64,000 bases of DNA from Paenibacillus sp. RC334 (GTDB lineage Bacteria; Bacillota; Bacilli; Paenibacillales; Paenibacillaceae), in NCBI RefSeq assembly GCF_030034735.1, contig NZ_CP125370.1, positions 1,426,001-1,490,000 on the forward strand. Direction: 5' to 3'. Numbering within the stretch: position 1 is the stretch's first letter; each line of letters begins with the position of its first letter. Below the pieces are notes generated by a model. It made no database searches, was not told the DNA's origin, and was given only the letters and a program-made list of their open reading frames with translations. Below, piece by piece: positions 10,954 through 41,154 of this stretch. The position numbers and the translations under genes are program-made.

Positions 10954-10993
10954 GTATAACCAATGAAATCGTTCTTATTCTTATATATAAATC

Positions 10994-11024
10994 GTTCAAT
11001 GAAGCTTACAGTTACTTATATTGA
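10994..11024 (+). promoter_or_regulatory. Cluster promoter motif, copy 1
   Basis: GTTCA at 10994-10998, 16 bases, then CTTATATTGA at 11015-11024. It lies 86 bases before the zinc-ribbon gene. ATCGTCAG follows at 11033 and also occurs after copy 2. Confidence 0.7.
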
Positions 11025-11109
11025 AGTATATAGATCGTCAGATGAATTGTAATATTGGAGACTACGTAAGGAGAAAATCAAACCTTGTACTATGAAGGAG
11101 GCTACAGGA

Positions 11110-11367
11110 ATGATGCAGTTTACCCCATGTATCCGGTGTGAATTTCGTTATGTGACACAAAGGGCTAGAGAAAACTTTATGGCAGAGAAAATGGCAGGAG
11201 AACCCTTGCTATGCCTGCATTGTATCGGCGAACTTACGGGTAAAGTAATGGATCAGTTCGGTAAACTTGTTTATCCTCATGAGGTTGAACAGTCTAATTG
11301 GCAGCAGCATATTCCGAGGTCGTCTATTGAGGGGTGTAGACCCTGTATGAAGAAACGAGGACGATGA
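11110..11367 (+). CDS. Small zinc-ribbon-like protein, first gene of the tail cluster
   Basis: Unrecognised 85-residue protein. It contains three CxxC pairs (PCIRC, LCLHC, GCRPC), suggesting a zinc-binding fold, with charged residues between them. ATG at 11110 is chosen because AAGGAGG lies 8 bases upstream; an in-frame ATG before it overlaps that site. It has its own copy of the cluster promoter and another copy after it, so it may be transcribed alone and early. A second small CxxC protein lies at 43217-43534 near the other end of the cluster. It might be a regulator or chaperone; nothing decides this. Confidence 0.65.
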   Translation: MMQFTPCIRCEFRYVTQRARENFMAEKMAGEPLLCLHCIGELTGKVMDQFGKLVYPHEVEQSNWQQHIPRSSIEGCRPCMKKRGR

Positions 11368-11389
11368 AGAGATCAAGTACATCGCTACA

Positions 11390-11420
11390 GTTAAAACATC
11401 CAATACTTCACTTATATTGA
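11390..11420 (+). promoter_or_regulatory. Cluster promoter motif, copy 2 (tail-core operon)
   Basis: GTTAA at 11390-11394, 16 bases, CTTATATTGA at 11411-11420, a perfect match. It opens the unit from the tube protein to the hub. A leader of about 130 bases follows, with a small hairpin (TCCATTC with GAATGGA) before the first ribosome site. Confidence 0.75.
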
Positions 11421-11559
11421 TATCGTCAGGAAGGTGGTTTGCTCAAAGGTCAAGTTGTCACGGGTTCAGATCATGACGCGGGCCTTGAGAACACATATAA
11501 ATACTCCATTCCAATCGGGATACCATTAGAATGGAATAATAAACTGGAGGTTTTTGAAG

Positions 11560-12612
11560 ATGGGAATGACGAAAAACAAAAAAATGTTGATTAAAGGTGC
11601 GGGCAAGTTTATGGCTAAAATTCCGAATAGTGATGAACTCATCACGATTGGAACACTGAACAACATGCTTTTGGACATCCAACTGGATATGCACGATATC
11701 GAGGGTGGAGATTCCAGTGTGCCCTTGGATGCATTGCTTCGTAAAAAAACGATTGATATTACAGCTCAAGATGCCAAATTTGACTTAAATCTGGTCCGTC
11801 TCGTCCTCTGTTCCAAGCTTCGTGAAGGTGTTAGCGGAGCGTCTTACCGACTGACAACGGAAACCGTGACGGTTCCAGGGGAATCCCCATACCAGGTGCT
11901 GCTCACAGAAGCCGCAGCGACAAGTCCTGCAATGAAGGCTTACGAGGATGTAATTACAGGCACAGATGTAACCACAGAAGTTACCGTGACAGGTAATAAG
12001 GCAGTGTTCGATGCAGCGTTGGCCGGGAAAAAAGTAGTGATTGTCTATCCTGTCGCTTTGAGTGGAATCCAGCAGGATGATGATGGATTTGTATGGGAGC
12101 TGGAAGAGAAGCACGTTATTCAGGAAGTAAACGGGAAGTGTGAGGCAGAGCTTGTCTTTGGTACCTCGCTGCATACCACGCCTGAAATTTCAGTGCGTAC
12201 GCTAAATGGAAACAAGCTTCTCAAACGTTCGCTCACCGGAACCCCTACCGAGGAGCAATACCTTGTTGAAGGGGGAAAGCTGATTTTCAATGCAGCGTTG
12301 AAGGATGTAGCCATTTATGTAAACTATAAACGCAATGAAGTGGTGGATGTTCTGGATATTTCGAGCAGGGATTTACCGTTGACGGTTCACCTGGTTCATG
12401 ATGGCCGTTTTGAGCAAAAGGACGGTTCTGTGCAAGGATACCAAACGGAATTGTATCAATGTCGTGTGAAATCCAATTTCACGATTGATGCTCAGCGCCA
12501 GCAGGCGTCTACGCATAGTGTAACCTTGACGGTCATTGACCCGGAACGCTTTGATAACAAGCTCGGCACGATCAAGCGTTATGAGATCGCAACAACATCT
12601 GCTAACAACTGA
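11560..12612 (+). CDS. Probable major tail tube protein
   Basis: 350-residue beta-rich structural protein, first gene of the tail-core operon. It is called tube protein mainly by position: next comes the chaperone pair with its frameshift, as in siphoviruses. There are no TM segments. It begins with a basic tail (MTKNKKMLIKGAGKFMAKI) and has an internal NGNKLLKRSL...VNYKRN stretch like the NGxxL...Y beta modules seen in other proteins of this cluster, probably an inserted Ig-like domain, since tube proteins are often shorter (140-250). ATG at 11560 is 9 bases after GGAGG; an upstream TTG is too close to it. Confidence 0.6.
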   Translation: MGMTKNKKMLIKGAGKFMAKIPNSDELITIGTLNNMLLDIQLDMHDIEGGDSSVPLDALLRKKTIDITAQDAKFDLNLVRLVLCSKLREGVSGASYRLTTETVTVPGESPYQVLLTEAAATSPAMKAYEDVITGTDVTTEVTVTGNKAVFDAALAGKKVVIVYPVALSGIQQDDDGFVWELEEKHVIQEVNGKCEAELVFGTSLHTTPEISVRTLNGNKLLKRSLTGTPTEEQYLVEGGKLIFNAALKDVAIYVNYKRNEVVDVLDISSRDLPLTVHLVHDGRFEQKDGSVQGYQTELYQCRVKSNFTIDAQRQQASTHSVTLTVIDPERFDNKLGTIKRYEIATTSANN

Positions 12613-12634
12613 TACGTAAGGATGTGTTTTCGAA

Positions 12635-13069
12635 ATGAATGAAAGAGAGTTCACCGTTCCATCTAAAAATGAGCCTTCCAAGTCAGATGCGGTGGTAGAA
12701 AGTACAAAGAAGGTTTTGACAGAAGAGGAAGCACAGATCAAAGAAAAAGCTTTCTTTGAAGAAGATGAAAAGGTGCGTCTCCGTGACGGTAAAACGTATT
12801 ATTTGCCTCCGCTTGGGTTAAAGGATGCGCGTAAGCTGATTAAAAAGCTGAACGCTATTGATTCCGGCATTATTATTGCAAATCTGATTCCAGATGACCC
12901 GGAAGGTGCGGATCGTTATCATGAGCTGATAGATGTGCTGATGATGGGCTTCAAGCCTTATTATAGCTGGATGACTCCTGAGCATCTGGAGGAGTATGTT
13001 GACCTCGAAACGGCCAAGCAAATTATTGATGCCATGATCGGACTGAATGGAATAAAAAAGTCCATGTAG
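12635..13069 (+). CDS. Tail assembly chaperone, short form (gpG-like)
   Basis: 144-residue acidic protein with a polar, probably disordered N-terminus (about 1-50) followed by a helical domain (KTYYLPPLGLKDARKLIKKL onward). Its place between the tube protein and the tape-measure-like gene, and the slip site A AAA AAG at 13054-13060 just two codons before the stop, are the hallmarks of the G protein of lambda-type tails. It would coat the tape measure during assembly and be absent from the finished particle. Confidence 0.7.
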   Translation: MNEREFTVPSKNEPSKSDAVVESTKKVLTEEEAQIKEKAFFEEDEKVRLRDGKTYYLPPLGLKDARKLIKKLNAIDSGIIIANLIPDDPEGADRYHELIDVLMMGFKPYYSWMTPEHLEEYVDLETAKQIIDAMIGLNGIKKSM

Positions 13070-13413
13070 CCACTGAGGATGAGGAGCTGGAGTATGACCG
13101 GCAAGCTCCCGTTGACTGGGCGAATCTTTTTTTTAAGCTGGCCCATTATTGTCACCTGGATAAGCATCAGGTTTGGGACCTTACGCTCCCTCAGTTGGGC
13201 TACTATCTGGAGCAGTGTCATGACCATATCGAATTTACAATTAAAGTATCCTCCATGTCTGCCGGTGGGCTATGGAGCGGGACTGATCAAATGGATCGTT
13301 CGGATACCCGCCATACAGCCCGTGAAGAAGTCAGGGAAGACGGCTCATATATGGGCAGCTATAAGATAGCGGACGAAGAAGATATGGCATTTCTGGCTAA
13401 TATGCTTGGATGA
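12635..13413 (+). CDS. Tail assembly chaperone, -1 frameshift product (gpGT-like)
   Basis: A -1 slip at 13054-13060 (codons ATA AAA AAG, so the heptamer is A AAA AAG in the proper phase) takes ribosomes into a frame open without a stop from 13060 to 13413, adding 117 residues for a 259-residue fusion. The extension starts VHVATEDEELEYDRQAPVDW and ends LANMLG. It has no ATG with a ribosome site of its own near its beginning. The arrangement matches programmed frameshifting in tail chaperones. Because other genes here have homopolymer indels, the A6 run should be confirmed. Confidence 0.7.
13054..13060 (+). promoter_or_regulatory. Ribosomal -1 frameshift heptamer
   Basis: A AAA AAG in zero-frame phase, the most efficient bacterial slippery heptamer. 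A possible downstream stem (GGAGCT at 13083-13088 with AGCTCC at 13103-13108) starts about 22 bases later, farther than usual for a stimulator. Confidence 0.7.
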
Positions 13414-13478
13414 AAGGCACTCCTGCTCTGCTCCGTATGGAGGGGCGGGAGTTTCATTTTATAAAAGGCGGTGAATGT

Positions 13479-14270
13479 ATGGGCAATATAGAGGTTGATG
13501 TGCTTGTGGAGCTACAGGCATTTATTCAGACACTAAGGCATTCTTCTCGTGCTGATATTCGGGAGCTGGCTTCACGCTTAGGGCGTTTGAGTGAACACAA
13601 GCACACATTAAGCACCTTATTAGATTGTAGGACAAGGTCCGAAGTAAACCAGCAAAAACCAGATCAGCTACCCGCAGATGAGAGTCAAAGTCTGCAACAT
13701 GATATGAATGGTAAAACGAAGCCGCTGACCTTCCCCATGAATGAATACGTGGGCAAGGTGCAGAGGGATCCAAGCAGGAAGACGCTAAACGCTGAAATAG
13801 CAGATATACGAACAGGCTCTATGGAGTATATCTGTATGCGCAAGCACCAAACTCAGGACTTGCAAAGTGTACTCCGTCATCAGCGTGCATTTCATATGAA
13901 GTCGGAAGCTTCATGGGAATTCCGAGAGCAGCACAGCGAATGGAGAGGGCAGTCCCTGCAAGCCCAATTGGGGATTTGGAGTGGGGTGGAGCCATTAGCT
14001 GGAACGTTTCATATGCCAGGGGGCGTCACAGAGCTGACCAGCAAAGAATATCTGACACGTGCAAACATGCACCCATCGTACACGATCAACTCCGGTGACG
14101 TCATCGTCCATATGACATTGCCTAATGTCACGAATGACGTAAGTCCGACCCAACTGGAAGCGATCGGTAACGGACTGGGAAGAGGTCTTAAAAACGGTAG
14201 AGCCGGAAGCTTACGGGATCAGCTTCTTATGAATCCGACCACTGCTTATCGTAGCAGTACGTCATATTAA
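13479..14270 (+). CDS. Tape-measure-like protein, unusually short
   Basis: 263 residues from ATG 13479 (ribosome site AAAAGGCGGTG). The N-terminal part is strongly helical (VDVLVELQAFIQTLRHSSR and on). The C-terminal part (SGDVIVHMTLPNV...SPTQLEAIGNGLGRGLK) resembles the usual end of siphovirus tape measures, a short beta pair followed by a helix. It sits where a tape measure should be, right after the chaperone pair. With the accepted rule of about 1.5 angstrom of tail per residue this would give a tail near 40 nm, far shorter than usual. No TM segments and no lytic domain. It could be the C-terminal remnant of a longer gene, but the upstream space is filled by the chaperone. Confidence 0.5.
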   Translation: MGNIEVDVLVELQAFIQTLRHSSRADIRELASRLGRLSEHKHTLSTLLDCRTRSEVNQQKPDQLPADESQSLQHDMNGKTKPLTFPMNEYVGKVQRDPSRKTLNAEIADIRTGSMEYICMRKHQTQDLQSVLRHQRAFHMKSEASWEFREQHSEWRGQSLQAQLGIWSGVEPLAGTFHMPGGVTELTSKEYLTRANMHPSYTINSGDVIVHMTLPNVTNDVSPTQLEAIGNGLGRGLKNGRAGSLRDQLLMNPTTAYRSSTSY

Positions 14271-14325
14271 TCCATACTCTGTCGAACCGGAGTAAACATC
14301 ATTTTTAATGACAGGAGGTATACAT

Positions 14326-14943
14326 TTGACTCAGCAAAGCCCCAATAAATCAGAAGATGTGATCTACAAAAAGCGATTATTTTATGATAACGGAATTCGC
14401 TTTGTCGAGGTTAAGGCCAAGTTTATCAGCGAATATAAGCCACCGGCTCCGACTCTGAAATCCCATGTTAATGAAACGTTTTCCTACTCAGTAGGCTTGG
14501 TCAATCGTGGAACTTCACATTATACAGCTGCCCTAACACTTTTATTTTACAGTAAAAAGGAATACGCAGACTGGCTATCTTTTATAGGCTCAGAACACAA
14601 ATATTATGATGAAAAAGGCACGATCTATCTGGGGGTTGTGACAGGTAAACCAGATATTCAAACGGCGGAGATGGAGACTAAATATATCATCCAAGTCCAA
14701 ATGTCACTTATTCGCAAGCAAGGTGATGAATACCGCTGCAAAAGCCAATTCATGGACCTCAATGGCCATTGGGCATCCAGCTATATCGAGGAAATGGAGC
14801 AGCGTGGTATGGTTACCATCCCTGCGGATGAAGGCGAAGTCAGCCCTTATTTCAGACCGGACGAGGGCTGTACCCGGGCAGAGGGAATCACCTTTTTGAT
14901 GAGGTCCTATAGGTATGTGGACCGGATTCTAAGGGGGTATTGA
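14326..14943 (+). CDS. Distal-tail-like protein with C-terminal SLH domain
   Basis: 205 residues from TTG 14326; AGGAGGT lies 7 bases upstream and inside the longer open frame, which rules out the ATG at 14308. Residues about 1-145 are beta-rich and fit a small distal tail (Dit-like) protein by position. The last 60 residues read as an S-layer homology domain: FMDLNGHWASSYIEEMEQRG ... YFRPDEGCTRAEGITFLMR, with the conserved FxDxxxHWA and RPxxxxTRAE elements. SLH domains normally bind pyruvylated secondary cell-wall polymer. The next gene starts one base after this stop and begins with another SLH-like stretch, so the two products may build one SLH cluster. Confidence 0.65.
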   Translation: MTQQSPNKSEDVIYKKRLFYDNGIRFVEVKAKFISEYKPPAPTLKSHVNETFSYSVGLVNRGTSHYTAALTLLFYSKKEYADWLSFIGSEHKYYDEKGTIYLGVVTGKPDIQTAEMETKYIIQVQMSLIRKQGDEYRCKSQFMDLNGHWASSYIEEMEQRGMVTIPADEGEVSPYFRPDEGCTRAEGITFLMRSYRYVDRILRGY

Positions 14944-14944
14944 G

Positions 14945-15994
14945 ATGAAACGTTGGATTGATGTAGATCCACTGGATTGGTTTTATAGAGATATGTTAGA
15001 TATGGCACGTTTAGGTCTGGATGCCCGCAACGAGCACAGCTTTATCGAGGGGATGCCCTACGACACTTTTGACCAAGAACATGAACGCATTGTCAAGCGC
15101 TTTGTAACGTTCGATGGTCAGCAGGAATTTGCCATTCCCGGCTATCAGATGCATATTGAAAATCCAGTTTTTGTTTTCGTCGCTGGAGTTCAGGTACAGC
15201 CTGAAAGAGTGGAAAACGAAAAAATAACGATGCCCCATCCTTTATCCGGCGGACTTGAGGTGGTATGTATCGCTTATGGCAGACCCGCTTATCAGGGGGA
15301 TGGCTGTGTTCAAAAACCTTATATGGATACGGACGAAAGTCTGATTATCCTGCCTTCTGCGATCTTGTCCATGGCGGCTGATTATCAGAGCCAAACGAAA
15401 TATCAGCCGGAGACGGTCACGGTTCTGGGAACCAAGCTCAAGCGGTTACCTGTGAAAATCCAATCGGAAGAAGATCCAAAGGAAGTGATTAAGAAAGCAT
15501 TCGGCTTCAGGCAGGATGCATTTGTGATTCATCAAGGAATTGTGTATCTCCCCTTCAACTATAACGGATTTCCCGCGACTGTCGGATATAACTATCGTGA
15601 AGCCGGGAGTGTGCAATTTAAACAGGAGACGGTCGTTGTCAGCACTGTACATGCTCGTTATCATGACCGTTTCTTTCCGAATGTTCGTATGAAAAGAGCA
15701 CAGTTTCTTGTTCTTCTTCAACAGATGCGGGTGGATATCTATAACAGATATACCGACCGTGGATTGGAGAGCAATACGTATCCGCCGAGAACCTTGCAGG
15801 ACCGAAGCTCTTTCTCAGGCCAATGGTATGAGCAGGATGTTATGGACTTGATAAGTGAGCAGTTTCTAGACGGAAGCTATGTATTTCCACTCTATGAAAA
15901 CAATATGCTGGAGCCAGAAAAATGTATTACACGTGCGGAAGCTGTCGTATTTTTAAACCGATTCATAGAATGGGCCCTAGAAAAATTCAGATAG
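14945..15994 (+). CDS. Tail protein flanked by two SLH-like segments
   Basis: 349 residues. The N-terminus (WIDVDPLDWFYRDMLDMARLG) and C-terminus (QWYEQDVMDLISEQFLDG ... LEPEKCITRAEAVVFLNRF) both look like SLH domains; the second keeps TRAE. Between them are two beta modules (VTFDGQQEFAIPGY...VFVAGVQVQ and FRQDAFVIHQGIVYLPFNY). ATG at 14945 overlaps the previous gene's ribosome context (stop TGA, one base, ATG), so translation is coupled. Together with its neighbour it supplies three SLH-like units, the number usually found together in S-layer proteins. No catalytic motif seen. Confidence 0.6.
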   Translation: MKRWIDVDPLDWFYRDMLDMARLGLDARNEHSFIEGMPYDTFDQEHERIVKRFVTFDGQQEFAIPGYQMHIENPVFVFVAGVQVQPERVENEKITMPHPLSGGLEVVCIAYGRPAYQGDGCVQKPYMDTDESLIILPSAILSMAADYQSQTKYQPETVTVLGTKLKRLPVKIQSEEDPKEVIKKAFGFRQDAFVIHQGIVYLPFNYNGFPATVGYNYREAGSVQFKQETVVVSTVHARYHDRFFPNVRMKRAQFLVLLQQMRVDIYNRYTDRGLESNTYPPRTLQDRSSFSGQWYEQDVMDLISEQFLDGSYVFPLYENNMLEPEKCITRAEAVVFLNRFIEWALEKFR

Positions 15995-16004
15995 GTGATG
16001 AAAA

Positions 16005-19000
16005 ATGACTTTTGAATCCATGAATAAGCACGGACAGGCTCGGGGTCATCAGCCACGCGTAATTGTAGAGCTGGACAAAATGTCCTATGTCCGCAGCTTG
16101 CGGCCAAACCAAGACGTTGTTCAATATGTAAAAGATACGGTCGTTAAAGACTTTTTGTCCATTGATGGTGTGACCCAGCTATCAAGTGAAAAGGAAGCCA
16201 CAAAGGTTAGCGAAATAGCCCGTCTCGCCAATTTGCCTATGTCCATGCCTATACTTTCTAGTTCGAAAATGCGTGGGCATGTTACCGATTCGAATCATAT
16301 ACAGGGCATGCTGGTTACCAGCCGTCACCGTTCAGTGAATTCCAAGCGCCCTCTTCACAAGGGAGTGGACCTGGATTGTGACAAGGAGGATACCATTCAT
16401 GCCGTATGGGATGGAAGAATTACTGCGGCTGGTGCTGTAAAGGGCTACGGTCACGCTGTATATATTCATCACGGCAACGGCTGGACGACCCGGTATGCTC
16501 ATTTGAAACCCAATGCGATGATGGTCAAGGTTGGAGATCATGTGAAGGCTGGAGATCCGATTGCTATAGGATGGAACTCGGGTCACAAGAGTAGTAGTGG
16601 AGGTGGGGATGGAGCACATCTTCATTTTGAGGTTCGCAAGGATGGCGAGGATTTGAACCCCGAAGCTTTCCTGCGCGGGGAAAAATCCATACAATTGCCC
16701 ATTCGATTGCTGGATGCGGCTGTTCAGAATAAAAGCACAGTCACTCCATCGTTGGCAGCTAGCACTGTCGAATCCTACACGGAATATAGTATGGAAGCGT
16801 GGGCTTATTATGTAAATGCTGCAAACTCTGAAGGCATTACAAGAGGAGGAACAGATGTACGGCAGTGGAAGGATTACAAAATTATTGCTGTCGATCCCTC
16901 TGTCATTCCGTTGGGAAGTAAGGTTGAGCTGTTGGTAGACGGGAAAAATTGGGGCGAATATGTGGCTGATGATACGGCTGGCTCCACGAAGGGCAAACGT
17001 ATTGAAATTTTAATGGAAAATGCGGAGCAATGCCTCCAGTTTGGGCGAAAACCTGTCATTGTGAAAATCAAGCAATGGGGGGACGGAAGAACTCGCAGCG
17101 CAAACTCAGAAGTCGATCAATCCATTGTATCCTACCAGATCAACCGTACCACGGAGAAGGTGTCGTACAACAAGGATTTTACGGCTCAAAAAACGAGTCT
17201 GGACCCTTTGAAATTTGTGGATATCGTGGGTGCCACACAATTTTTCACCAATGAAACGCCTAATCAGGTTCGTAATGTTTTAGGTTTTCAACGAACAGAC
17301 GGGGCGGGTCAGGTGAAGAAATTCACGTTTGTGCATGACTGGTTCAAGGCCGGTTGTTTAAGCTGGGCCTATGTGTCGGATATGGATATCCAGGACAGAG
17401 TAGAGGTGAAGGTGGACGACCATGTAGTTGCGACCATTGAAGGGGTAAATGCCAAAAACGGACTGGCTTATCCTCCCTCTATTCCGGTGCCTGGTGGACA
17501 CCACAAGATCGAATTTTCAATGTCGAATCCTTCCAAGGCGTCAAGAGGTAATTTCGGGATCACTTTCCTGAAAGCCAGAGAATTTGATGTGGAATCCGTC
17601 TCAGCCAAAACAGTCTGGACGTTCGAAGACCCGATGAGCACAATAAATGATTGGACTCCCGATCAGCAGGTAGTGGTGACGGATCTGGGGGATCAGCAGA
17701 AGATATCCACAGCACGGGAAGAGGCTGGTATTGAACGGACAGGGAAGATAAACAAATTTCCATTTACGATGCAGTTCCGAATTAAGGCCGATCAGGGAAC
17801 ACAAGGGAAAATAATAATGTCCAATGGCTCCAAAGCATTTGTGGTCAAGGTTACAGATCAGGGGATTTCTACGAATGTCAGCTCCTATAGCCATAACCAT
17901 ATGAGCGAGTACACCGATTATGTAGTAACCTGCCATAACGAAACAGATATGGATGTATATATTAAAAGCATACTTCCGGGTGGTGTCGAACAATGGGAAA
18001 ATACCCGGGTACGCGGCGTATCCGAGGAAGATACGGCGAACAGACTGCGGTTTTCCGTATCCAGCGGTGGTCTGTATATTGCAGAGGTAAAATATTCCTT
18101 TCATGATTACTCTATTGAGCAGTTTGCCACCCATATCGCAGATACGTATAAGGAGAAATGGTATGACGTCGGCGGGTTTCAGTATGAGGATACCGCTTCA
18201 CTGGAACGGGATGTGATGAACTGGGAGGTTCATTCTCACATGGATATGTCCTCGACGTCAGCCACCGTAACTTTAAATAATGCCAAAGGGATCTACTCCC
18301 TATCCCTGGAACGTTACGCTGCATTTCCTGATGGGAGGAAGCAGCCACCTAACGAATTTACCTATTGGGAGGAGGGTGAGCGAAGACATCTGATTAGTGA
18401 AGGGACTCCCATCCGTATTTATGCAGGCTACGGTGATGAGCTGGTACGTGTATTTACAGGCATGATCAAGGGTGAAATTGAGGAGGATGCCGAGAGAAGA
18501 ACGCTTACGTTCCACTGTGTAGACCGTTATGACATGCTGGAGGAATTTATATTTTATAAGGATATGATCTACCCTCCAGAGGAAGCGTATGCTGGGGACG
18601 GCGGCGCCTTTGCCTGGATGAAATCCAGTATTGTAAAGGATATTGTGGTCGCAGCCGGGCTTAATTCATGGCGTGTGCACGGGGAAGAATGCCAATATCC
18701 CGATTTGGATATAGACGAAACGGTATATGTTGATGTGAAGAAGGGCAAGCACTCCTACATGAGATTTGATTCCAAGTCAGGAGAGCTTCAGACGATTCCC
18801 CAAGATCAAGAATGTGTGAAAACAGCCGAAGGCTGGGAAAATCCTTTCGTAGCAACGGTATCCTTCAAGACGGGAACAAGGGCATCAGATGCTATACAAT
18901 CGCTCATACAGGATTTGCCCTATGATGTCAGATGTGATCGTTACGGAACGTTTACACTGAAACGAATGAATTTTCTGGATACTCCGGATTGGGATCAGAT

Positions 19001-33012: not shown

Positions 33013-33064
33013 TATTTATGTCTACTACCTCTAAAGAATTTTGTATGCTTTATCTCCGCAGAAT

Positions 33065-33095: not shown

Positions 33096-33165
33096 GTATG
33101 CCATGAGGAACGTGGCGAAAGGTTTTATTTTATTTTATCTTTTCTAAAATGAAGGAGGAAAAAAC

Positions 33166-33660: not shown

Positions 33661-33696
33661 CAACTGATATCCAATACAATGGGAGGAAGAATATCT

Positions 33697-34314
33697 ATGT
33701 TTGCACAATGTAACGGATATTCTCCTGTGTCACAGGATTTTATTTGGCTGGGTGAGTACACAGACGGTACTCACCTTTCTGAGTATGATTTTGTCACTCA
33801 GGCAGAAAACAGCTTTTACGCCATTCAAAGAGATAAATTGATTCGCTTTGGTATGGTTGGGCACGGTCAAACTTTTTTCTTTGAAAGTGACGGTATTTTC
33901 AAATTGGCTGGCAGGATGGTGGAGCTGGTATATTCAACGCCGGACAAAGACTATAACCTGACGGGTAACGTGTTTCAATCCTACAGAGACATTATTTCAT
34001 ATAAGGATGCGGAGGCATCTGGATTACCCAATTATAGCCCTGCTGCGGCTGGAGAAAAAGGTGTAATGAGTAGTACGATTACCCAATTTAATTTTGGATA
34101 TAAGGCGGCACTTCTGTTTGACCATGTTGAATTTCATGTCAAAGCGATCTGTAAGATTCCATTCAACGCACCCGTTCATATGGCATTGAGACTAGTATCC
34201 AATACGGAACTGAATGGTAAATTACAGGTCAAGGTAAACGGCTTGGTTACTCAGGAATTCAGTGCTCCATTAAAACCCGATATCGGAGGTGAATTGAATT
34301 GGCTGGTTCAGTAA
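33697..34314 (+). CDS. Tail protein of unknown role upstream of the GLUG fibre
   Basis: 205 residues from ATG 33697. The upstream ATG at 33679 is rejected because GGAGGA lies just after it and 9 bases before 33697. The protein is beta-rich with aromatic residues (LIRFGMVGHGQTFFFES, YNLTGNVFQSYRDII). It overlaps the next gene by 16 bases, so the two are coupled and probably form one subassembly, for example a fibre base. No recognised domain. Confidence 0.6.
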   Translation: MFAQCNGYSPVSQDFIWLGEYTDGTHLSEYDFVTQAENSFYAIQRDKLIRFGMVGHGQTFFFESDGIFKLAGRMVELVYSTPDKDYNLTGNVFQSYRDIISYKDAEASGLPNYSPAAAGEKGVMSSTITQFNFGYKAALLFDHVEFHVKAICKIPFNAPVHMALRLVSNTELNGKLQVKVNGLVTQEFSAPLKPDIGGELNWLVQ

Positions 34315-37070
34315 TTCGTAATTATACGATTGAAGTGGATAACATCAATAAAAAGTCAGTATTCAGTATATACCCATATCCTGTAGAAGTTCTCACTCCA
34401 AATGGTTGGGAAAGTATTAAAGAAGAATTTGAAGAGTTGCAGGAAAAAAAGCTGGATGTCAATGATACATTAACACCTGATGAAGAGCAGATTTATCAGG
34501 AATATAAGCAATTGGCTGATTCCTTTTACGAGAATAAAATAGCTTCCACGATTATTTTGGATACCGTCGATCCGACGGGAATTGACATCGTAGGCAGAGA
34601 TCGGGTGCAGCATGTATTGGATGCGGAAACCCGTGGACAGATTCCGTTTGGCCGTGAATTCGCTTATGTGCATGGAGCCTCCAACCTTAGCGGAACGATT
34701 ATTTTACCCTATGATGATTATTCGGATGTATACGTAGTCAGTGATGCGGATGAAGACGGTGTTGCCGAGCTGACCTATGTGAAGACGAAGGAAGAGACGG
34801 ACGGCGTAAGACCCTATTATGAAAAGATAGAGGGTCAGACCTATATTTATGTGGATCACTTCTCTGGTGGTGGTGGAACGCAGGCAGATCCTTATATTGT
34901 TTCTACCGAACAGGATTTGGATGATGTACGGAAGAAGCCTGGGGCCTGGTATATGCAGGATAGGGATATTGTCATGGGGAGCTTTCAGACCGGAGAGGGG
35001 TTTACACCGATAAGTTCTGGTACTTCTTTATTTACAGGTGTGTATGATGGTAATGGTTACTCTATAAAAAGCTTGTACATGAATCAGGATAGGGATTTTG
35101 TTGGTTTATTTGGATATACTCGATCGGCAACAATTCGTAATTTACGGTTAATCAATCCTAACATAACGAATAAAAAGTTATATACAGGTGCTTTAATAGG
35201 TTATGCATTCAATACTTCAGTATATAATTGTAATGTTATTTCAGGTGTAGTAGAAGGTCAGAGTGGAATTGTTGGTGGATTAATAGGTTATCTAAGTCAA
35301 ACCAATCAGAATTACGTAGGCAGCTCAATCCTTAATTATTTATATAATTTTAAGTGTAACGTTCGATCAGCAGGCAATATTGCAGGAGGGTTCATTGGAA
35401 ATGTAAATTATTACAGCGGCAGTTTCTCAATTGCATATTGTTACTCTACCGGTAAGGTTGAGGATATCACATTAGCTCGGGAAAGAAGCAATATTGGGGG
35501 CTTTATAGGCAGTAATAATACTTCTGCAATTACAAATTGTTATTGGGATATAGAAACCTCTGAAGTTCCAACCAGTGCAGCAGGTGTTGGTAAATCTTCG
35601 TCGGAATTAAAGGTTGCATCCACATTTGAAAATTGGGATTTTGCAAATTATTGGTACATGAGTCAGGATTACAATGGAGGATATCCAGAACATAGACAGT
35701 TCATTCGATACCAAAGTGGGACGGGCACAAAGGAGGATCCTTACATGATTCTGACCGAGTTTGATCTTGCTCAAATGCGCTGGTTCCGCAATGAATCTTA
35801 TTTCAAATTTGAAGATGATATCAAAATGACACAATTCCAGTCGGGAGCCGGGTTTTACCCTATAGGTTTTAATCTTGTGGGTAAAGAATCGTATTTCAAA
35901 GGATATGTTGATGGTGGAGGGCGCTGTGTTGCTAACTTATTCATCTATCGTCCCAATGATTCATTTGTAAGTCTGTTTGGCTATATGATGGGTGGATGGA
36001 TCAAGAATCTGGATATCATTGATTGTAATATTACAGGCAGCAGTTATACGTCAGCATTAGCAGGCCAGCTTTCCAAAGCTACCATTAGCAATTGCCATGT
36101 CGATACATTTTCTTATTGCAAAATTACGAGTAGAGGAAGTTATGGAGCCGGATTGGTAGGACAGGTAACTACGGATGGAATCGTAGAGGACTGTAGTGTA
36201 AATGCAACTGTTGCAGGAGCAGGCTACACCGGAATGTTTGCAGGCTATTTAACAGGTAATGGGATTATACGCAGATGCTATGCTTCTGGTAAAGGCGAAA
36301 GTTCAGGGGATTACCTAGGAGGATTTTTAGGTTACGGTAATGGTTCTCCCATAGTGGAGGATTGCTGGACAGATGCGGAGTTAAATGGAATAACGGTAGG
36401 CGGATTTGGTGGGAATACTGCTACCCTCACGATAAGACGATGTCTTGCGTTAGGCAAAGCATTTGCTTCCGCTTTGAATGGATTTATTTATACAGGTAGT
36501 GGAGTCTTTTCAGATAATTACTTTGATAAGGAATTGTATAAGAATGCTTCCGGCACAGGAGGATCAGGCTTGACCACCCGTGAAATGAAGTACAGGGGAA
36601 CCTACTCCAATACGGCCTGGAATTTTGATGATATATGGATTATGGATCCTAAATATAATGACGGTTATCCTGCATTAAGAAAGCTCCTACCTCTTGATCT
36701 ACCGTTGCTCGGCTTCCGTAATGAATTTGGTAAATACTATACGGATAATGCAGGAGAGCGGCTGCGTTACCTGGAGTTTGGTACATTAGTCGCAAGCCAA
36801 ACCTCTTCTCCAAAACCAGTATGGTTGCAGAATAATGCTGATTTCCCGGTAAATCAGCTCAAAGCATGGGTGGACAGCACGACGGTAGCCAAAGGGATGG
36901 AAATTGATTTAAGCATGTCGGATACTCCGTTTTTACCTGCTCAGGAATTAGCCTTTAATGGCACCTTGGCCAAGGGCGGCGCGGAAAAGTTCTATGTCCG
37001 AATCAAGTCGGATATTGCAGTGAAGACGGGCGGAACGTTTGATCTAAGGGCGAAAGCAAGCCCCATGTAA
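34299..37070 (+). CDS. Large GLUG-repeat tail fibre/spike
   Basis: 923 residues from TTG 34299 (GGAGGTG 7-8 bases upstream). After an N-terminal region with a helical segment (EELQEKKLDVNDTLTPDEEQ) come two large sets of GLUG-type units: GGGGTQADPYIVSTEQDLDD ... VGLFGY, GALIGYAF, GGLIGYLS, GGFIGNV, and again GTGTKEDPYMILTEFDLAQM ... AGLVGQV, GGFLGYG. Such repeats form right-handed beta-solenoids in bacterial adhesins. A C-terminal beta domain follows. The DNA from about 35.05 to 36.55 kb is clearly more AT-rich than the flanks, suggesting that the binding part was swapped in by transfer. It likely sets target range. Confidence 0.75.
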   Translation: MAGSVIRNYTIEVDNINKKSVFSIYPYPVEVLTPNGWESIKEEFEELQEKKLDVNDTLTPDEEQIYQEYKQLADSFYENKIASTIILDTVDPTGIDIVGRDRVQHVLDAETRGQIPFGREFAYVHGASNLSGTIILPYDDYSDVYVVSDADEDGVAELTYVKTKEETDGVRPYYEKIEGQTYIYVDHFSGGGGTQADPYIVSTEQDLDDVRKKPGAWYMQDRDIVMGSFQTGEGFTPISSGTSLFTGVYDGNGYSIKSLYMNQDRDFVGLFGYTRSATIRNLRLINPNITNKKLYTGALIGYAFNTSVYNCNVISGVVEGQSGIVGGLIGYLSQTNQNYVGSSILNYLYNFKCNVRSAGNIAGGFIGNVNYYSGSFSIAYCYSTGKVEDITLARERSNIGGFIGSNNTSAITNCYWDIETSEVPTSAAGVGKSSSELKVASTFENWDFANYWYMSQDYNGGYPEHRQFIRYQSGTGTKEDPYMILTEFDLAQMRWFRNESYFKFEDDIKMTQFQSGAGFYPIGFNLVGKESYFKGYVDGGGRCVANLFIYRPNDSFVSLFGYMMGGWIKNLDIIDCNITGSSYTSALAGQLSKATISNCHVDTFSYCKITSRGSYGAGLVGQVTTDGIVEDCSVNATVAGAGYTGMFAGYLTGNGIIRRCYASGKGESSGDYLGGFLGYGNGSPIVEDCWTDAELNGITVGGFGGNTATLTIRRCLALGKAFASALNGFIYTGSGVFSDNYFDKELYKNASGTGGSGLTTREMKYRGTYSNTAWNFDDIWIMDPKYNDGYPALRKLLPLDLPLLGFRNEFGKYYTDNAGERLRYLEFGTLVASQTSSPKPVWLQNNADFPVNQLKAWVDSTTVAKGMEIDLSMSDTPFLPAQELAFNGTLAKGGAEKFYVRIKSDIAVKTGGTFDLRAKASPM

Positions 37071-37100
37071 TGATGTTCCAATACAATGGAATAGGGCGTG

Positions 37101-40100
37101 ATGTTGATGTTTAGTAAGAGAGGATTAATCCTTTCCCTTCACGCTTCCCTTGCCGATCAAGGTTTGGAGGTTGGCTCCAACTCAAAACCCACTTCGCAAT
37201 GGCATGATTTGAGTGGTAAAGGAAATCACGGCATACTGAATGGCTTCCATTTTACGAAAGATGATGGTTGGGGAGGCAGAAACACCCCCGTCGATCCCTA
37301 TGCCCTGTTTTTTAACGGGACGAGCCATTATGTCCAATGTACAGGCGCGGATACCTCTAAGCCTGTCGCCAGTGTTACCTTTGAAGTGTGGATATATTAT
37401 ATCGGGGGCAACGTTGTTTTGTCTTCCGGGGGACGGTTGAACGATACCCAGGGCATTTTGGTCATGTTTAACCCTGTGGGGGAATTGGAGCTTCAGGTTG
37501 CGACCCGTACAAGAAAAGCATATGCCAACTTAGGGGAATTACCCAGAAACAAATGGTATCATATTGTTGGCGCATATGACGAAATTACAGGCAATCTATC
37601 TACCTTTCTGAATGGGGCTCCTCAAGGAAATGTGCAAGCTGAAGTCACTGAACATATCAAGCAGCCAGATGGACTTTTTATTGGCAGGCACAGTACAGAG
37701 GATAGCCAATGGTTTCGTGGATATATTCCTGTTGTACGGATGTACAATGTTGCGTTAACGATGGATGTAATCGTTGCAAACTATATGGCTGGTTACCTTT
37801 TGGGGATAGGTCATTCTGACATGCAGATTTATACGAGAGTACCAGAAAGGCAGAATCTCACAGCATCTTTGCAAGTGGGAATTAGCGGAGGAGTTCAAGG
37901 AAAGCAGACCATTATTCCTACCGACATGGCTGACATGTCTTCACATATAACCGTTAAAAAGCCTAGTCATATAGTGAGCAATATGCATATTAATACTCAT
38001 GTTTCTGTAAAAGCGCACTATGCGACCCGCCCTGCGGATCATGATGATGTACAGAGTACTATTGAAGTTAAAGTAGCGGATAATCTTGCAGCCGTACTGG
38101 GTGTTAGTGCGTCAGGGAAAACGGCTGTAAAGGCTCGATATAGTATCCTGCCTGCGGATAATAGTGATGTCCAAGGTAGGTTGGCAGTTAAGGTATCCGA
38201 TCATCTCACTGCTGTGCTGAGTGTTAGCTCATCAGCTATAGCAGTAGGCACATACGATGTGAAGCGGCTCATGCCAAATGATTTGCTTTCCAGCCTGAAT
38301 GTTGTGCAACAGGGATTACCTTCCCGTATATCGGTTCAAGCAAGTACTACCTTAGCCGCCAAATACGATATTCATGCTGTTCAGGAGCAAAACCTCAAAG
38401 CTGTAATAGAGGTCAAAGAGCCTAATGATATCGTCAGTAGCTTAAAGGTAAACACTCAGGTAAACAGCAACGGAAGATATCAGGTACGGGGAATTGAGCC
38501 TGCTAATCTCAGCTCCAGCCTGCAAATTAAGTCTATTCATCAAATATATTCATTATTGTCTGTACGAGCCCATACTCACCTGGGCGTGAAATATGGTATA
38601 GAGTCTCTTGGAGCCGAAGACTTAACCTCCTTCCTGACGGTACCAAGTATATCTGAACTACACAGTAGCATTCTGGTAGGTACCCATACCCGATTAATGG
38701 GGCATTACCATATTCGTAAAAGTCATGTTATAGATATATATGCTAGTCTGGAAATTAAGAAGACGGAGAATCTATCTTCATTCTTGTCTATTGCATCCTT
38801 TACCCAGTCTACCGGCAGATACGGGATAACTTCTCGGAGTTATGATGATCTTCCGTCTGCAATGACGGTTCGGGAAGTTTCGAATATGGCTTCATCCATA
38901 GGAGTTGCACCCTATACATGGATGAAAGGCAGATATGATGTTATCGAGCCCCCAACGTACACGACGATTATGTATTCTAATAAAGATGCTTTTGTTCGTG
39001 AGTCTCAGCCCAGATTAAACTATGGTGTTGAGGAACAAATGTATGTCGGATATTCTGCCTCGGCTCAGGAAAGATACAGATCTTATGTTGGCTTTGATTT
39101 GGATACAGCTTCTATTCCCAAGAAAAATACAACGATTAAATCTGCCGAGCTCAAAGTGTATTTCGATGGTCGCAACGTACCCCTGAAGGGGATACAGCTC
39201 ATTGAAGCATCCAGGGAATGGACAGAATATGGAGTTACCTGGCAAAACCAACCGTTTCCGTTTGGCTTTAGCAGTCCTAATTCAACCTATGACGGTATAA
39301 ACATCGTTCAAGATGTAGGTGGAGATTCAGGGTACATTTCTTTTGATGTGACTGATTCCATTCGTGCATGGTATGAAGGAAAAAGGCCGAATTTTGGATA
39401 TATCTTTAAAGCTCTGGATGAATTTGAAAATGGAAGTATCCGTTTTTTTACCAAGGAGCAAAAATCGTACCGTCCTATATTGGATATTACCTACTATGAT
39501 ACTCGTATCTATAGTTTGGGCAGGAACAGTATAGAAGGTGGCCTTACCTCTCGTGTAAGTAAGGTGTCTCATCTTCCAGCTTCGTTTCGCATCAAACAGT
39601 CCCATGGAGCAACGGTTTTGAAGGGAAGCTTGTTTGTCCATAACCAAAGGGAGGTCCTGGCCGATATCACAGTGACGGTACCTAACTTAAACGGTAAGGT
39701 GTCCGTACGGCGCAAGGATAATCATTCTTTGAAAGCTCAGCTTGTTATTGCTGTTGCACGTGAGAATTCAATGGACAGCACCCTGTGGGTGAATAGGAAA
39801 ATAGTACCTTCGAGTATGTATGTCTTTTACAGGGAGAACCTTGCTTCCGAACTGAGCGTTGCCCGCTGGGCAGCTCCGTTTCCCGAACTTCCGGCAACGA
39901 TTCTTGTCAATCGAAAGGAAACGCTTGGGTCGATCCGTGTAAGAAGGACAGAGCATCAGGATATCTCTTCTAATATGGAACTGAGTATCCCTAATATATT
40001 AGGGAGCATAACCGTCTTTCAGGGAGCGGTAAAGAAAAGCTCTATTTCAGTCCGTAGATCTCGTGAAGCGGATCTGATGGTGGAGGGGCATATACTTTAT

Positions 40101-41096
40101 AGGCAAGATATGCCTGCGGATATGAATATCCACAATCCTGATTTTTACGGCAGTCTCCAAATTGTGTTTGGTAACCTGCTCATATCCGATTTGTCTGTAA
40201 GAACAAGAGCGCAATCCGGGCTATCTTCAACGGTCACAATACCGCATTATACTTCTTTGAGATCAAGTATAGCGATCTGGCCGAAAAAAGATGTGCCTTC
40301 AAGTCTCACTGTACTTTCAGGAAATTTATGGGCCTCCATATCCATTCCGTACCATATAAGAATGGATATGCAGTCACGAATTACAGTGCGAGTTAAGCTC
40401 ATTTCTGATCTGGAAATTGCAGTAGGAGTAAGATCCGGTAATCTAGGCTCTAACATAAAGGTTCGAGTGGACAGCCATACGGATCAGTCTTCTCATCTGC
40501 GAATCAGACGTAGTCATTTGGACTCTATCTCGAGTGAGCTTTACGTAAAAACTTGGGAGAAATCTGAACTTAAAGGCAGGATCAGTACACGGAAAAGCCG
40601 TGAATCTGATAGATGGTCTCGAATCTCGGTGCGTCTTTCCGATCAGCAGGATTGGGATACCGAACTATCGGTTCGTGTTATGGAACACCATGATCTGAAT
40701 GCTGAAGTGGGGATTAGGCGGGACGCAGCGTATGATAAATATGGTCGCGTTACCGTTCGACATTCAGAGCAAACAGAGCTTCCATCAGATTTGGAGATTC
40801 GGGAACATAGTCACATCACAGGCTATCTAACAGTGAGAAGGACAGCACAAATAAGCTTACAAAGTGATATGAGTGTGTGGGAGAAATCCATTGTCACTGG
40901 CTCAGTGGTGGTCAGACAGTATCGACAAAATGATCTTCATGGTTCCATGGACATTTGGAAAAGATCTATATTAAAAGGCCATATTTCCGTGTGGCAGAAA
41001 GCATTACTACCTGGGGCTATACAGGTTCAGGTGTATGATGATATGGCTTCCAGTATAGATGTGGCTACAGAATACGGATACTGCTTTATCATGTAA
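37101..41096 (+). CDS. Giant tail fibre: LamG-like head, 38-residue repeats, DNRLRE domain, short beta repeats
   Basis: About 1331 residues, the largest product in the cluster. Order: LamG/concanavalin-like domain (about 5-235; FNGTSHYVQC, FEVWIYYIGG, LPRNKWYHIVGAYDE, FIGRHSTEDSQWFRGYI); eight tandem 38-residue repeats (307-611); a DNRLRE/CBM96-like domain (about 615-805; DAFVRESQPRLNYGVEEQMY, WTEYGVTWQNQP, ISFDVTDSIRAWYEG); and a C-terminal run of units of about 12-15 residues (SVRxxxxxDLxSxL) to the end. Sugar-binding-type domains plus long beta repeats indicate a receptor-binding fibre. The exact start among GTG 37098, ATG 37101 and ATG 37107 is unclear. A strong terminator follows directly. 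Confidence 0.75.
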   Translation: MLMFSKRGLILSLHASLADQGLEVGSNSKPTSQWHDLSGKGNHGILNGFHFTKDDGWGGRNTPVDPYALFFNGTSHYVQCTGADTSKPVASVTFEVWIYYIGGNVVLSSGGRLNDTQGILVMFNPVGELELQVATRTRKAYANLGELPRNKWYHIVGAYDEITGNLSTFLNGAPQGNVQAEVTEHIKQPDGLFIGRHSTEDSQWFRGYIPVVRMYNVALTMDVIVANYMAGYLLGIGHSDMQIYTRVPERQNLTASLQVGISGGVQGKQTIIPTDMADMSSHITVKKPSHIVSNMHINTHVSVKAHYATRPADHDDVQSTIEVKVADNLAAVLGVSASGKTAVKARYSILPADNSDVQGRLAVKVSDHLTAVLSVSSSAIAVGTYDVKRLMPNDLLSSLNVVQQGLPSRISVQASTTLAAKYDIHAVQEQNLKAVIEVKEPNDIVSSLKVNTQVNSNGRYQVRGIEPANLSSSLQIKSIHQIYSLLSVRAHTHLGVKYGIESLGAEDLTSFLTVPSISELHSSILVGTHTRLMGHYHIRKSHVIDIYASLEIKKTENLSSFLSIASFTQSTGRYGITSRSYDDLPSAMTVREVSNMASSIGVAPYTWMKGRYDVIEPPTYTTIMYSNKDAFVRESQPRLNYGVEEQMYVGYSASAQERYRSYVGFDLDTASIPKKNTTIKSAELKVYFDGRNVPLKGIQLIEASREWTEYGVTWQNQPFPFGFSSPNSTYDGINIVQDVGGDSGYISFDVTDSIRAWYEGKRPNFGYIFKALDEFENGSIRFFTKEQKSYRPILDITYYDTRIYSLGRNSIEGGLTSRVSKVSHLPASFRIKQSHGATVLKGSLFVHNQREVLADITVTVPNLNGKVSVRRKDNHSLKAQLVIAVARENSMDSTLWVNRKIVPSSMYVFYRENLASELSVARWAAPFPELPATILVNRKETLGSIRVRRTEHQDISSNMELSIPNILGSITVFQGAVKKSSISVRRSREADLMVEGHILYRQDMPADMNIHNPDFYGSLQIVFGNLLISDLSVRTRAQSGLSSTVTIPHYTSLRSSIAIWPKKDVPSSLTVLSGNLWASISIPYHIRMDMQSRITVRVKLISDLEIAVGVRSGNLGSNIKVRVDSHTDQSSHLRIRRSHLDSISSELYVKTWEKSELKGRISTRKSRESDRWSRISVRLSDQQDWDTELSVRVMEHHDLNAEVGIRRDAAYDKYGRVTVRHSEQTELPSDLEIREHSHITGYLTVRRTAQISLQSDMSVWEKSIVTGSVVVRQYRQNDLHGSMDIWKRSILKGHISVWQKALLPGAIQVQVYDDMASSIDVATEYGYCFIM
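38019..38933 (+). repeat. Eight tandem 38-residue (114-base) repeats in the giant fibre
   Basis: Units begin at a Tyr and read Y-x-[IV]-x(6)-DL-x-S-x-L-x-V-x(4)-L-x-S-x-L-x-V-x(9). Examples of unit starts are YQVRGIEPANLSSSL, YGIESLGAEDLTSFL, YHIRKSHVIDIYASL and YGITSRSYDDLPSAM. Lengths are 40, 38, 37 and then five of 38 residues, exactly filling 305 codons. Nucleotide identity between units is low, so they are old. Confidence 0.88.
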
Positions 41097-41136
41097 ACTT
41101 AACCCCTGCTATTCGTAGCAGGGGTTAAGTTTTACT
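41097..41136 (+). terminator. Strong terminator of the large fibre operon
   Basis: A perfect 15-bp stem (ACTTAACCCCTGCTA with its complement) closed by a TTCG tetraloop and followed by TTTT. It begins right at the stop codon of the giant fibre gene. Confidence 0.93.
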
Positions 41137-41154
41137 GATTTTTACTTATATTGA
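41124..41154 (+). promoter_or_regulatory. Cluster promoter motif, copy 6 (holin-like gene)
   Basis: GTTAA at 41124-41128 within the right arm of the terminator stem, 16 bases, CTTATATTGA at 41145-41154. Perfect match; it drives the small membrane protein that follows. Confidence 0.75.

What the first reader, a model, noticed from the sequence alone, without database searches (positions are those of the whole stretch)
10993..41154. A private two-part promoter motif unifies the tail cluster
Six intergenic sites carry GTTAA (or one to two changes) at exactly the same distance from CTTATATTGA: 10994, 11390, 19512, 31592, 33065 and 41124 (start of the first half). Five have the second half exact, one differs at the last base. 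All lie upstream of cluster genes; by eye I saw none outside 10.9-41.2 kb. Two (19512, 41124) overlap the terminator of the unit before, so one DNA stretch ends and restarts transcription. The motif fits no Bacillus sigma consensus I know. Together with two cluster-encoded sigma-like proteins it suggests a dedicated regulon.
Basis: partly seen in the sequence, partly recalled or inferred. Interest (0 to 1): 0.92.

Follow-up and report, generated by a model that had tools for sequence, protein, structure and literature searches.

The report
Phage late promoters in domesticated tail cluster
A bacterial gene cluster that seems to build phage tails without heads has kept the phage's own switch-on signals and two of its control proteins, and it appears to be triggered by the cell's DNA-damage alarm.

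Summary
Six sites match GTTAA-N16-CTTATATTGA within two mismatches; 0.18 were expected by chance. Five of the genome's seven sites with at most one mismatch lie in the cluster. The spacing is that of a -35/-10 promoter (GTTAAn-N17-TATATT).

The motif is not private. It is a promoter class of Jenst-like phages, found in phages Jenst and EZ-2018a and nine of ten related Paenibacillaceae elements, mostly before tail genes. The cluster is a headless Jenst-type tail locus between the same host genes in eight genomes; both its sigma genes are under purifying selection.

Upstream of the smaller sigma gene (sig178) lie a sigmaA-type promoter, a conserved LexA-like box and one copy of the phage's other promoter class, GCAACT-N16-CGACYATWA.

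Best model: DNA damage -> LexA release -> sig178 (ECF-like) -> sig319 (full-length sigma) -> tail promoters. Promoter ancestry is well supported; which sigma reads which class, and SOS control, are inferred. Two sites double as terminators, and one of these hairpins covaries across seven lineages.

New variant of a known kind.

The parts
10994..11024 (+). late-class promoter 1 (GTTCA-N16-CTTATATTGA), before the 91-aa gene
   Evidence: column conservation
11390..11420 (+). late-class promoter 2, before the 352-aa tail-tube-like gene
19512..19542 (+). late-class promoter 3, before the 139-aa gene; -35 and spacer lie in the 3' side of the upstream terminator hairpin
   Evidence: same arrangement at this junction in 10 of 10 loci scanned; covariation in 7 lineages
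31592..31622 (+). late-class promoter 4, before the 416-aa gene
33065..33095 (+). late-class promoter 5, before the 164-aa gene
41124..41154 (+). late-class promoter 6, before the holin-like frame; -35 GTTAA is in the 3' arm of the terminator hairpin
11092..19457 (+). tail genes, first block: 91 aa; 352-aa tube-like; 144 aa; 96 aa; 286-aa tape-measure C-terminal piece; 211 aa; 349 aa; 1150-aa M23/3D peptidase
   Evidence: Jenst matches (no Jenst match for the 96-aa protein)
19565..41096 (+). tail genes, remaining blocks, up to the 1332-aa lectin/CBM protein
41197..41487 (+). holin-like frame, 59% identical to Jenst gp137
41703..41731 (+). sigmaA-type promoter TTGACA-N17-TAAAAT upstream of sig178
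   Evidence: aligned in 8 genomes
41733..41746 (+). LexA-like (SOS) box AGAACATAAGTTCG, just downstream of the -10
   Evidence: 8 of 8 genomes; boxes also upstream of recA and lexA in this genome
41773..41803 (+). second-class ('middle') promoter GCAACT-N16-CGACTATTA upstream of sig178
   Evidence: best hit in the window at 18.7 bits, found in 8 of 8 genomes
42015..42551 (+). sig178, ECF-like two-domain sigma factor; orthologue of Jenst gp051
42696..43899 (+). genes between the two sigma genes: 162 aa (virion-structural family), 105 aa, 115 aa
43988..44947 (+). sig319, sigma factor with regions 2, 3 and 4 plus a C-terminal extension; orthologue of Jenst gp117

Best explanation
The motif is the late (structural-gene) promoter class of Jenst-like siphophages, -35 GTTAR and -10 CTTATAWTG with a 17-bp spacer. 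It has been kept, with its transcription machinery, in a headless tail cluster fixed at one chromosomal site of the Paenibacillus terrae group. The cluster works as a relay. (1) Without damage, LexA on the box at 41733 shuts a sigmaA promoter upstream of sig178. (2) On DNA damage sig178, an ECF-like sigma factor, is made; it reinforces its own operon through the GCAACT-N16-CGACYATWA promoter at 41773 and transcription runs through to sig319. (3) sig319, a full-length sigma with regions 2, 3 and 4, directs host RNA polymerase to the six late promoters, and the tail genes and the holin-like gene are expressed. At two junctions one DNA stretch both ends the previous transcript and starts the next. 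Shown by sequence: the promoter ancestry, positions and conservation, the box, both promoter classes, and selection on both sigma genes. Inferred: that these act as promoters, which sigma reads which, LexA binding, read-through to sig319, and the particle's role (a flexible-tail tailocin). My confidence by step: phage late-promoter ancestry 0.93; sig319 reads it 0.75; SOS control 0.7; whole relay 0.6.
For: Cluster genes from the tube-like one on match Jenst gp159 to gp139 in order; both sigma genes have Jenst orthologues at 59% and 51%. In Jenst the motif stands right before the counterparts of the genes behind window sites 19512 and 33065, and upstream of the counterpart of the holin-like gene behind 41124. 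A matrix built from 6 window and 12 Jenst sites finds 62 sites of 16 bits or more in 11 loci not used to build it (1.04 Mb), against a control mean of 2.3, maximum 7, from 40 column shuffles; 44 of the 62 lie within 400 bp before a tail-gene or holin orthologue on the same strand. Among 75 genus genomes the exact core occurs 37 times in the 13 with sig319 and 7 times in the 62 without (reversed control 10 in 75). sig178 and sig319 occur in the same 18 of 394 family genomes. The second class scores 10 bits or more within 900 bp upstream of sig319 in Jenst and 10 of 10 other elements, and of sig178 in Jenst and 8 of 10, against 210 of 4000 random stretches of that length; so sig319 seems to be made after that class fires. 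The best match of Jenst's third sigma, gp111, in the window, EZ-2018a and eight elements is sig319 itself, and in two elements there is none. sig178 best matches ECF sigmas; sig319 aligns along regions 2-4 of full-length sigmas. LexA-like box in 8 of 8 genomes. dN/dS 0.08-0.15 for both sigma genes in three comparisons.
Against: No transcript, start site or protein-DNA contact was measured. Sigma assignment rests on gene order, domain type and elimination. A lone sig178-like gene (35%) in G063 has no site of either class at 11 bits or more in the 20 kb around it. Only three of the six window sites have a Jenst site at the same gene. In EZ-2018a only 1 of 4 strong late sites passed the tail-orthologue test, the second class is altered (CCACTA, spacer one base shorter in 3 of 4 matches to a pattern I wrote for it), and the Jenst matrix finds no second-class site before either sigma gene. 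G247 has no late site and no tail gene in the 80 kb fetched. In the window's own group no second-class site precedes sig319 (best 5.8 bits), so its expression must come from upstream or from an unseen promoter. sig178 in G060 is split by a frameshift in a draft assembly. The LexA-like core at one mismatch occurs 94 times in the genome, about once per 64 kb, so conservation and position carry the argument. A sigmaA -10 also resembles TATAWT. G066, G016 and G059 are near relatives, so the 11 loci are not 11 independent events. Both structure models have modest confidence (mean pLDDT 77-78) and weak global superposition (TM about 0.3).
Confidence: 0.7

Rival explanations
1. sig178, not sig319, reads the late motif, or the two act together as a split sigma in the manner of SPO1 gp33/gp34, so the second promoter class has another reader.
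For: Both genes occur together and both are under purifying selection. In Jenst a late-class site (70906-) lies upstream of the gp115-gp117 genes, so sig319 may itself be under this class.
Against: sig178 has the ECF-like shape, and the other promoter class, with its AAC...CGAC halves, is the one that looks ECF-like (consensus recalled; the one paper search for it found none). In EZ-2018a the late motif is little changed and sig319 keeps 43-45%, while the second class has shifted and sig178 has fallen to 30%. sig319 carries regions 2, 3 and 4 on one chain.
Confidence: 0.18
2. Host sigmaA reads the -10 (TATATT/TATAAT) and a phage activator binds the GTTAR element in place of a -35. Small cluster proteins of 91 and 105 aa would be candidates.
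For: The -10 fits sigmaA and the -35 matches TTGACA at only 2 of 6 positions (sequence). A relative of the 105-aa protein is encoded in all ten other elements and in Jenst.
Against: The -35 to -10 spacing is exactly 17 bp at all six sites, as for a sigma factor. Two sigma genes are kept under selection. The 91-aa gene is not found in G018, whose late promoters remain.
Confidence: 0.12
3. A relic: a decaying prophage whose promoters persist by recent descent and do nothing.
For: Head and DNA-packaging genes were not found, nor Jenst's endolysin gp135; the tape measure is only 286 aa. In G008 the 96-aa gene has an early stop.
Against: Eight genomes share the locus, the motif halves are more conserved than spacer and flanks, and most genes show dN/dS well below 1.
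Confidence: 0.07

Closest known systems
Brevibacillus phage Jenst / SecTim467 (PMC4909266; motif section read in full, other passages seen)
   Same: Orthologous tail genes in the same order, orthologues of both sigma genes, and the same late motif. The 2016 paper proposed that a repeated promoter-like motif (19 copies in Jenst) is read by a phage sigma.
   Different: That paper describes one motif, upstream mainly of replication and nucleotide genes. I infer it is GCAACT-N16-CGACCATAA, not the late motif; its figure is not held, so this is not certain. Jenst has head genes and a third sigma; neither was found here.
SPO1 middle/late sigma cascade (gp28, gp33-gp34); late promoter CGTTAGA-N17-19-GATATT (PMC3601020 and PMC9429907, passages)
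   Same: Phage-encoded sigma factors redirect host polymerase. The late -35 GTTAG and -10 GATATT resemble GTTAR and TATAWT.
   Different: SPO1 gp34 falls best in another protein family (phrog_1025, against phrog_1740 and phrog_351 here).
UviA-controlled bacteriocin of Clostridium perfringens (PMC4885068, passages; its LexA control is recalled)
   Same: An alternative sigma factor drives a bacteriocin.
   Different: Single group V sigma, protein bacteriocin; here two sigmas in series and a phage tail.
PBSX of Bacillus subtilis with Xpf (PMC4243946, abstract and passages)
   Same: Defective prophage with a sigma-like factor; the particle and its induction are recalled.
   Different: One factor, and PBSX is recalled to be headed; here two sigmas and no head genes found. 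sig178 was not compared with Xpf by sequence.

Membership tests
Jenst-type phage late promoter | same two-part motif before structural genes in the phages | tested here: met
   Jenst; further elements (44 of 62 sites). EZ-2018a has the motif but only 1 of 4 strong sites passed the tail-orthologue test
Jenst-type phage late promoter | transcription starts a few bases after the -10 | not testable with these tools
   no transcript data
SPO1 gp34-type late system | sigma factor of the gp34 family | tested here: not met
   gp34 best = phrog_1025; window proteins = phrog_1740 and phrog_351; gp34 touches those two only at E 0.01 and 0.035
ECF sigma factor (sig178) | two domains (regions 2 and 4), no region 3, ECF-like fold | tested here: met
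   178 aa; Sigma70_r2 only in Pfam; the top solved-structure matches are mainly ECF sigmas (SigH, SigL), E 3e-4 and weaker, TM about 0.3
ECF sigma factor (sig178) | cognate anti-sigma factor | not tested
   no search was made for one
LexA (SOS) regulon | CGAAC-N4-GTTCG-like box at the promoter, conserved | tested here: met
   8 of 8 genomes, one mismatch to the pattern in this genome; recA and lexA boxes
LexA (SOS) regulon | LexA binding and damage induction | not testable with these tools
   needs experiment
flexible-tail (F-type) tailocin | siphovirus tail genes without head and packaging genes | tested here: met
   Jenst terminase, portal and major head protein give no hit at E 1e-5 in the window or G061; 0.2 kb between the 91-aa and tube genes against 11 kb in Jenst
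flexible-tail (F-type) tailocin | lysis genes | tested here: inconclusive
   holin-like frame present (59%), Jenst endolysin gp135 not found in the window; M23 peptidase in the 1150-aa protein
flexible-tail (F-type) tailocin | kills related bacteria | not testable with these tools
   needs particles
SPbeta YonO-type polymerase promoter | phage-encoded YonO-like polymerase | not tested
   no search made; no core polymerase is named in the Jenst annotation, where many proteins are hypothetical

The most novel reading that the evidence does not exclude
A bacterial lineage has captured a phage's two-tier sigma relay and put its first step under LexA: SOS -> ECF-like sigma -> full-length phage sigma -> tail promoters. 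That would be a tailocin run by two sigma factors of its own in series. Its conserved terminator-promoters use the terminator hairpin's 3' side as the -35 element, so that late transcription units abut with no spare DNA. Related headless elements with the same relay occur across Paenibacillaceae.
Probability: 0.55. Interest if true: 0.7.

Novelty: new variant of a known kind. Interest (0 to 1): 0.6.

Why it matters
Phage sigma cascades are classical, but they are known from phages that replicate. Here such a cascade seems to survive inside a chromosome with only a tail to make, and its first step seems tied to the host's damage alarm. The two promoter classes give a ready assay for two phage sigma factors for which I saw no test in the papers looked at (PMC4909266 names them as candidates only), and a motif by which hidden tail clusters of this family can be found and their induction predicted. 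The terminator-promoter fusion, held by compensatory changes, is a clean case of one DNA stretch under two constraints.

Tried and rejected
Considered and dropped: (a) a cluster-private motif: refuted by Jenst and the other elements. (b) An SPbeta YonO promoter: an early guess about the cluster's kin; the cluster matches Jenst, and the YonO paper says its promoter sequence is undetermined (PMC5467207, passages). (c) Membership in the SPO1 gp34 family: not met. (d) A genome-wide regulon: no excess over the reversed control. Around the two outside sites with one mismatch I saw no phage gene by eye in the 3 kb fetched; the long frames on both sides of each run on the opposite strand. No family search was made there.

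Led nowhere: viral-contig scans with single proteins (none; one locus, with the length of Jenst and so probably Jenst itself); search for solved structures with the sig178 profile (none); paper searches for ECF consensus letters (none) and for tailocin with sigma factor, LexA and promoter (none).

Results against my reading: EZ-2018a lacks a second-class site by the Jenst matrix before either sigma gene, and only 1 of its 4 strong late sites passed the tail-orthologue test; 18 of 62 late sites in all failed that test; G170 and G247 lack a good second-class site before sig178, and the eight genomes of the window's group lack one before sig319; G247 gave no late site, and its 80 kb held no tail genes, while the G220 and G343 stretches do not reach the head junction, so headlessness at that junction is seen in 7 of 10 other elements only; only 16 of 70 late sites overlap a strong hairpin (shifted controls 0 to 6 of 70); in the pair count the number of further pair types is no higher than in shuffles (11 against 10.1, 178 of 500); the lone sig178-like gene of G063 has no site of either class nearby; L133 (Bacillus chungangensis) shows no late site in the 4.9 kb held. 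In the dN/dS call some aligned frames held stops: the 416-aa frame at columns 2 and 9 (its true start is probably later), the 96-aa frame of G008 at column 44, and the 162-aa frame of G008 near its end.
Full report
Observation. The six reported sites exist at the stated coordinates, on the strand of the genes, all between genes. With at most two mismatches over the 15 fixed positions the window holds exactly these six; 100 dinucleotide shuffles gave a mean of 0.18 and at most 1. In the whole 5.98-Mb genome there are 7 places with at most one mismatch, of which 5 are in the cluster, and 22 with at most two, of which 6 are in the cluster. With up to three mismatches the genome has 244 places and the reversed control 251, so there is no genome-wide excess. 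Read as a promoter, the two halves are 17 bp apart: GTTAAn-N17-TATATT.

Footprint. The locus lies between the same host genes (sodium:dicarboxylate symporter and Vut_1 on one side, M24 peptidase on the other) in eight genomes, the window's included. Over the six sites, 28 of 30 columns of the first half and 52 of 54 of the nine -10 positions counted are invariant, against 64 of 96 in the spacer, 81 of 120 upstream and 73 of 120 downstream. Sites 1 and 2 were compared in seven genomes, leaving out G018; the other sites in eight.

Where the motif comes from. The tube-like protein matches only four phage records in the collection searched: Jenst (two entries), SecTim467 and EZ-2018a. From that gene on, cluster genes run in the order of Jenst gp159 to gp139. 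In Jenst the same motif, with TATAAT as well as TATATT, lies right before gp152 (33626) and gp143 (46732), the counterparts of the genes behind window sites 19512 and 33065, and at 58074, upstream of the integrase and the holin-like gp137, the counterpart of 41124. For the other three window sites I saw no Jenst site directly at the same gene. A weight matrix from the 6 window and 12 Jenst sites finds its two best EZ-2018a sites at 24.1 and 23.4 bits (training maximum 24.1). Over EZ-2018a and ten Paenibacillaceae elements not used in training it finds 62 sites of 16 bits or more in 1.04 Mb; 40 column-shuffled matrices gave a mean of 2.3 and a maximum of 7. Of the 62, 44 lie within 400 bp before the start of a tail-gene or holin orthologue on the same strand; EZ-2018a contributes 1 of 4 and G247 no site at all. 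Three of these loci (G066, G016, G059) are near relatives. In the genus, the exact core GTTAR-N16-CTTATATTGW occurs 37 times in the 13 genomes with sig319 (34 of these in the elements) and 7 times in the 62 without; the reversed pattern occurs 10 times in all 75.

A headless tail cluster. Jenst terminase, portal and major head protein give no hit at E 1e-5 in the window or in G061, the two of the eight genomes tested. Between the 91-aa gene and the tube gene there are 11.0 kb in Jenst, 0.2 kb here and 0.9 to 2.5 kb in the seven other elements whose fetched stretch covers this junction; in G066 and G016 only scraps of terminase of 20 and 23 codons were found. A published genome of a related Paenibacillus lists 'Brevibacillus phage Jenst', intact, as a prophage call in six of ten genomes compared, its own strain included (PMC12643537, section 3.1 read). 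If those calls are this locus, 'intact' is misleading. The genes are maintained: in three pairwise comparisons dN/dS is 0.08-0.15 for the two sigma genes and at most 0.4 for the others except the 286-aa tape-measure piece (0.50-0.57) and the 96-aa protein (0.49-0.77). The 96-aa frame has an early stop in G008.

Two sigma factors and two promoter classes. sig319 (59% to Jenst gp117) and sig178 (51% to gp051) occur in the same 18 of 394 Paenibacillaceae genomes at the thresholds used. A search for over-represented spaced words in Jenst recovered a different motif, GCAACT-N16-CGACCATAA, mostly on the strand of the replication genes. This is probably the motif described in 2016 for Jenst and SecTim467 and ascribed to a phage sigma factor (PMC4909266, section 20 read); its logo is not held, so the identity is inferred. 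The window holds one strong copy, at 41773, upstream of sig178, found in 8 of 8 genomes. In the other elements a site of 10 bits or more lies within 900 bp upstream of sig319 in 10 of 10 (10.0 to 22.5 bits) and of sig178 in 8 of 10, and upstream of both in Jenst; EZ-2018a has none before either, and the window's group none before sig319. Random stretches of that length reach 10 bits in 210 of 4000 cases. So in most of these loci sig319 is made after this class fires, and the late class plausibly after sig319. For Jenst's third sigma, gp111, the best match in the window, in EZ-2018a and in eight of the ten elements is sig319 itself, and two elements gave none, though the second class persists in the elements; this leaves sig178 as its simplest reader. 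Domain types agree: the sig178 model best matches ECF sigmas, and the AAC / CGAC halves of the second class look ECF-like (recalled; no paper found); sig319 aligns over regions 2 to 4 of full-length sigmas. Both models are of modest confidence.

The trigger. Upstream of sig178 lie TTGACA (41703), a 17-bp spacer and TAAAAT (41726), then AGAACATAAGTTCG at 41733-41746. The box is present in 8 of 8 genomes, varying only in its first base and its centre. In this genome recA has such a box starting 89 bp before the match to its family model, and lexA has two, one differing from this box at one base. At one mismatch the pattern occurs 94 times in 5.98 Mb (reversed control 395), so chance in a given 60-bp promoter is about 0.1%. 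SOS control is thus likely but not shown.

Terminator and promoter in one. At 19512 and 41124 the -35 half lies in or beside the 3' arm of a strong hairpin, with T-rich sequence between it and the -10. The junction before the 139-aa gene has this arrangement in 10 of 10 loci scanned. In seven lineages outside the window's group, with a structure drawn by hand from these sequences, 95% of cells pair; 6 of 15 pairs have changes on both sides, against 2.4 for shuffles (1 of 500 as high), though further pair types do not exceed shuffles; sliding the arms lowers pairing to at most 64%. Over ten loci, 16 of 70 late sites overlap such a hairpin, against 0 to 6 of 70 at shifted positions.

Literature. 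Only PubMed Central papers under open licences could be searched. No paper held tailocin, sigma factor, LexA and promoter together. Searches for Paenibacillus with tailocin (15 of 26 listed) and P. polymyxa with phage tail-like (6 of 6 listed) were seen as listings only and showed no description of this cluster by title or opening lines. SPO1's late promoter CGTTAGA-N17-19-GATATT is from a passage of PMC3601020.

Verdict. The finding is real and mostly well read. The motif is an inherited phage late promoter, not a private invention, and it is one half of a two-class, two-sigma relay that appears to be under damage control.

Noticed in passing
window 13410-14270: The tape-measure gene is only 286 aa and matches just the C-terminal end of a 1738-position phage tape-measure profile. 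The tail should be far shorter than the phage's. It also evolves faster than most of its neighbours (dN/dS 0.50-0.57).
   Followed up: partly
G018 element (joined from L037-L039), about 9061: Promoters 1 and 2 appear fused by a deletion between their shared -10 sequences: the first site's -35 and spacer are followed by the second site's downstream sequence, and the 91-aa gene was not found.
   Followed up: partly
It could be a sequencing error or a real loss.
   Followed up: no
L119, about 10431 (G063:C1:833431): A lone sig178-like gene (35%) far from the tail cluster, with no other cluster gene detected in 20 kb and no site of either promoter class at 11 bits or more.
   Followed up: partly
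window 43900-43990: Just upstream of sig319 the letters CGACTACT resemble the second-class -10 without a matching -35: perhaps a worn-out copy of the promoter that precedes sig319 in the phages.
   Followed up: no
window 42552-42690: The stretch between sig178 and the next gene is strongly conserved over about 100 bp in the seven genomes aligned. Function unknown.
   Followed up: no
elements in G066, G016, G059, G017: LexA-like boxes resembling those upstream of lexA lie some 7 to 20 kb past sig319, so these elements may sit near the host lexA gene. Not checked by gene search.
   Followed up: no
Bacillus tequilensis locus L134: A further sig319 relative (46%) outside Paenibacillaceae with a late-class site at 608 (20.6 bits) in the 4.9 kb held.
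   Followed up: no
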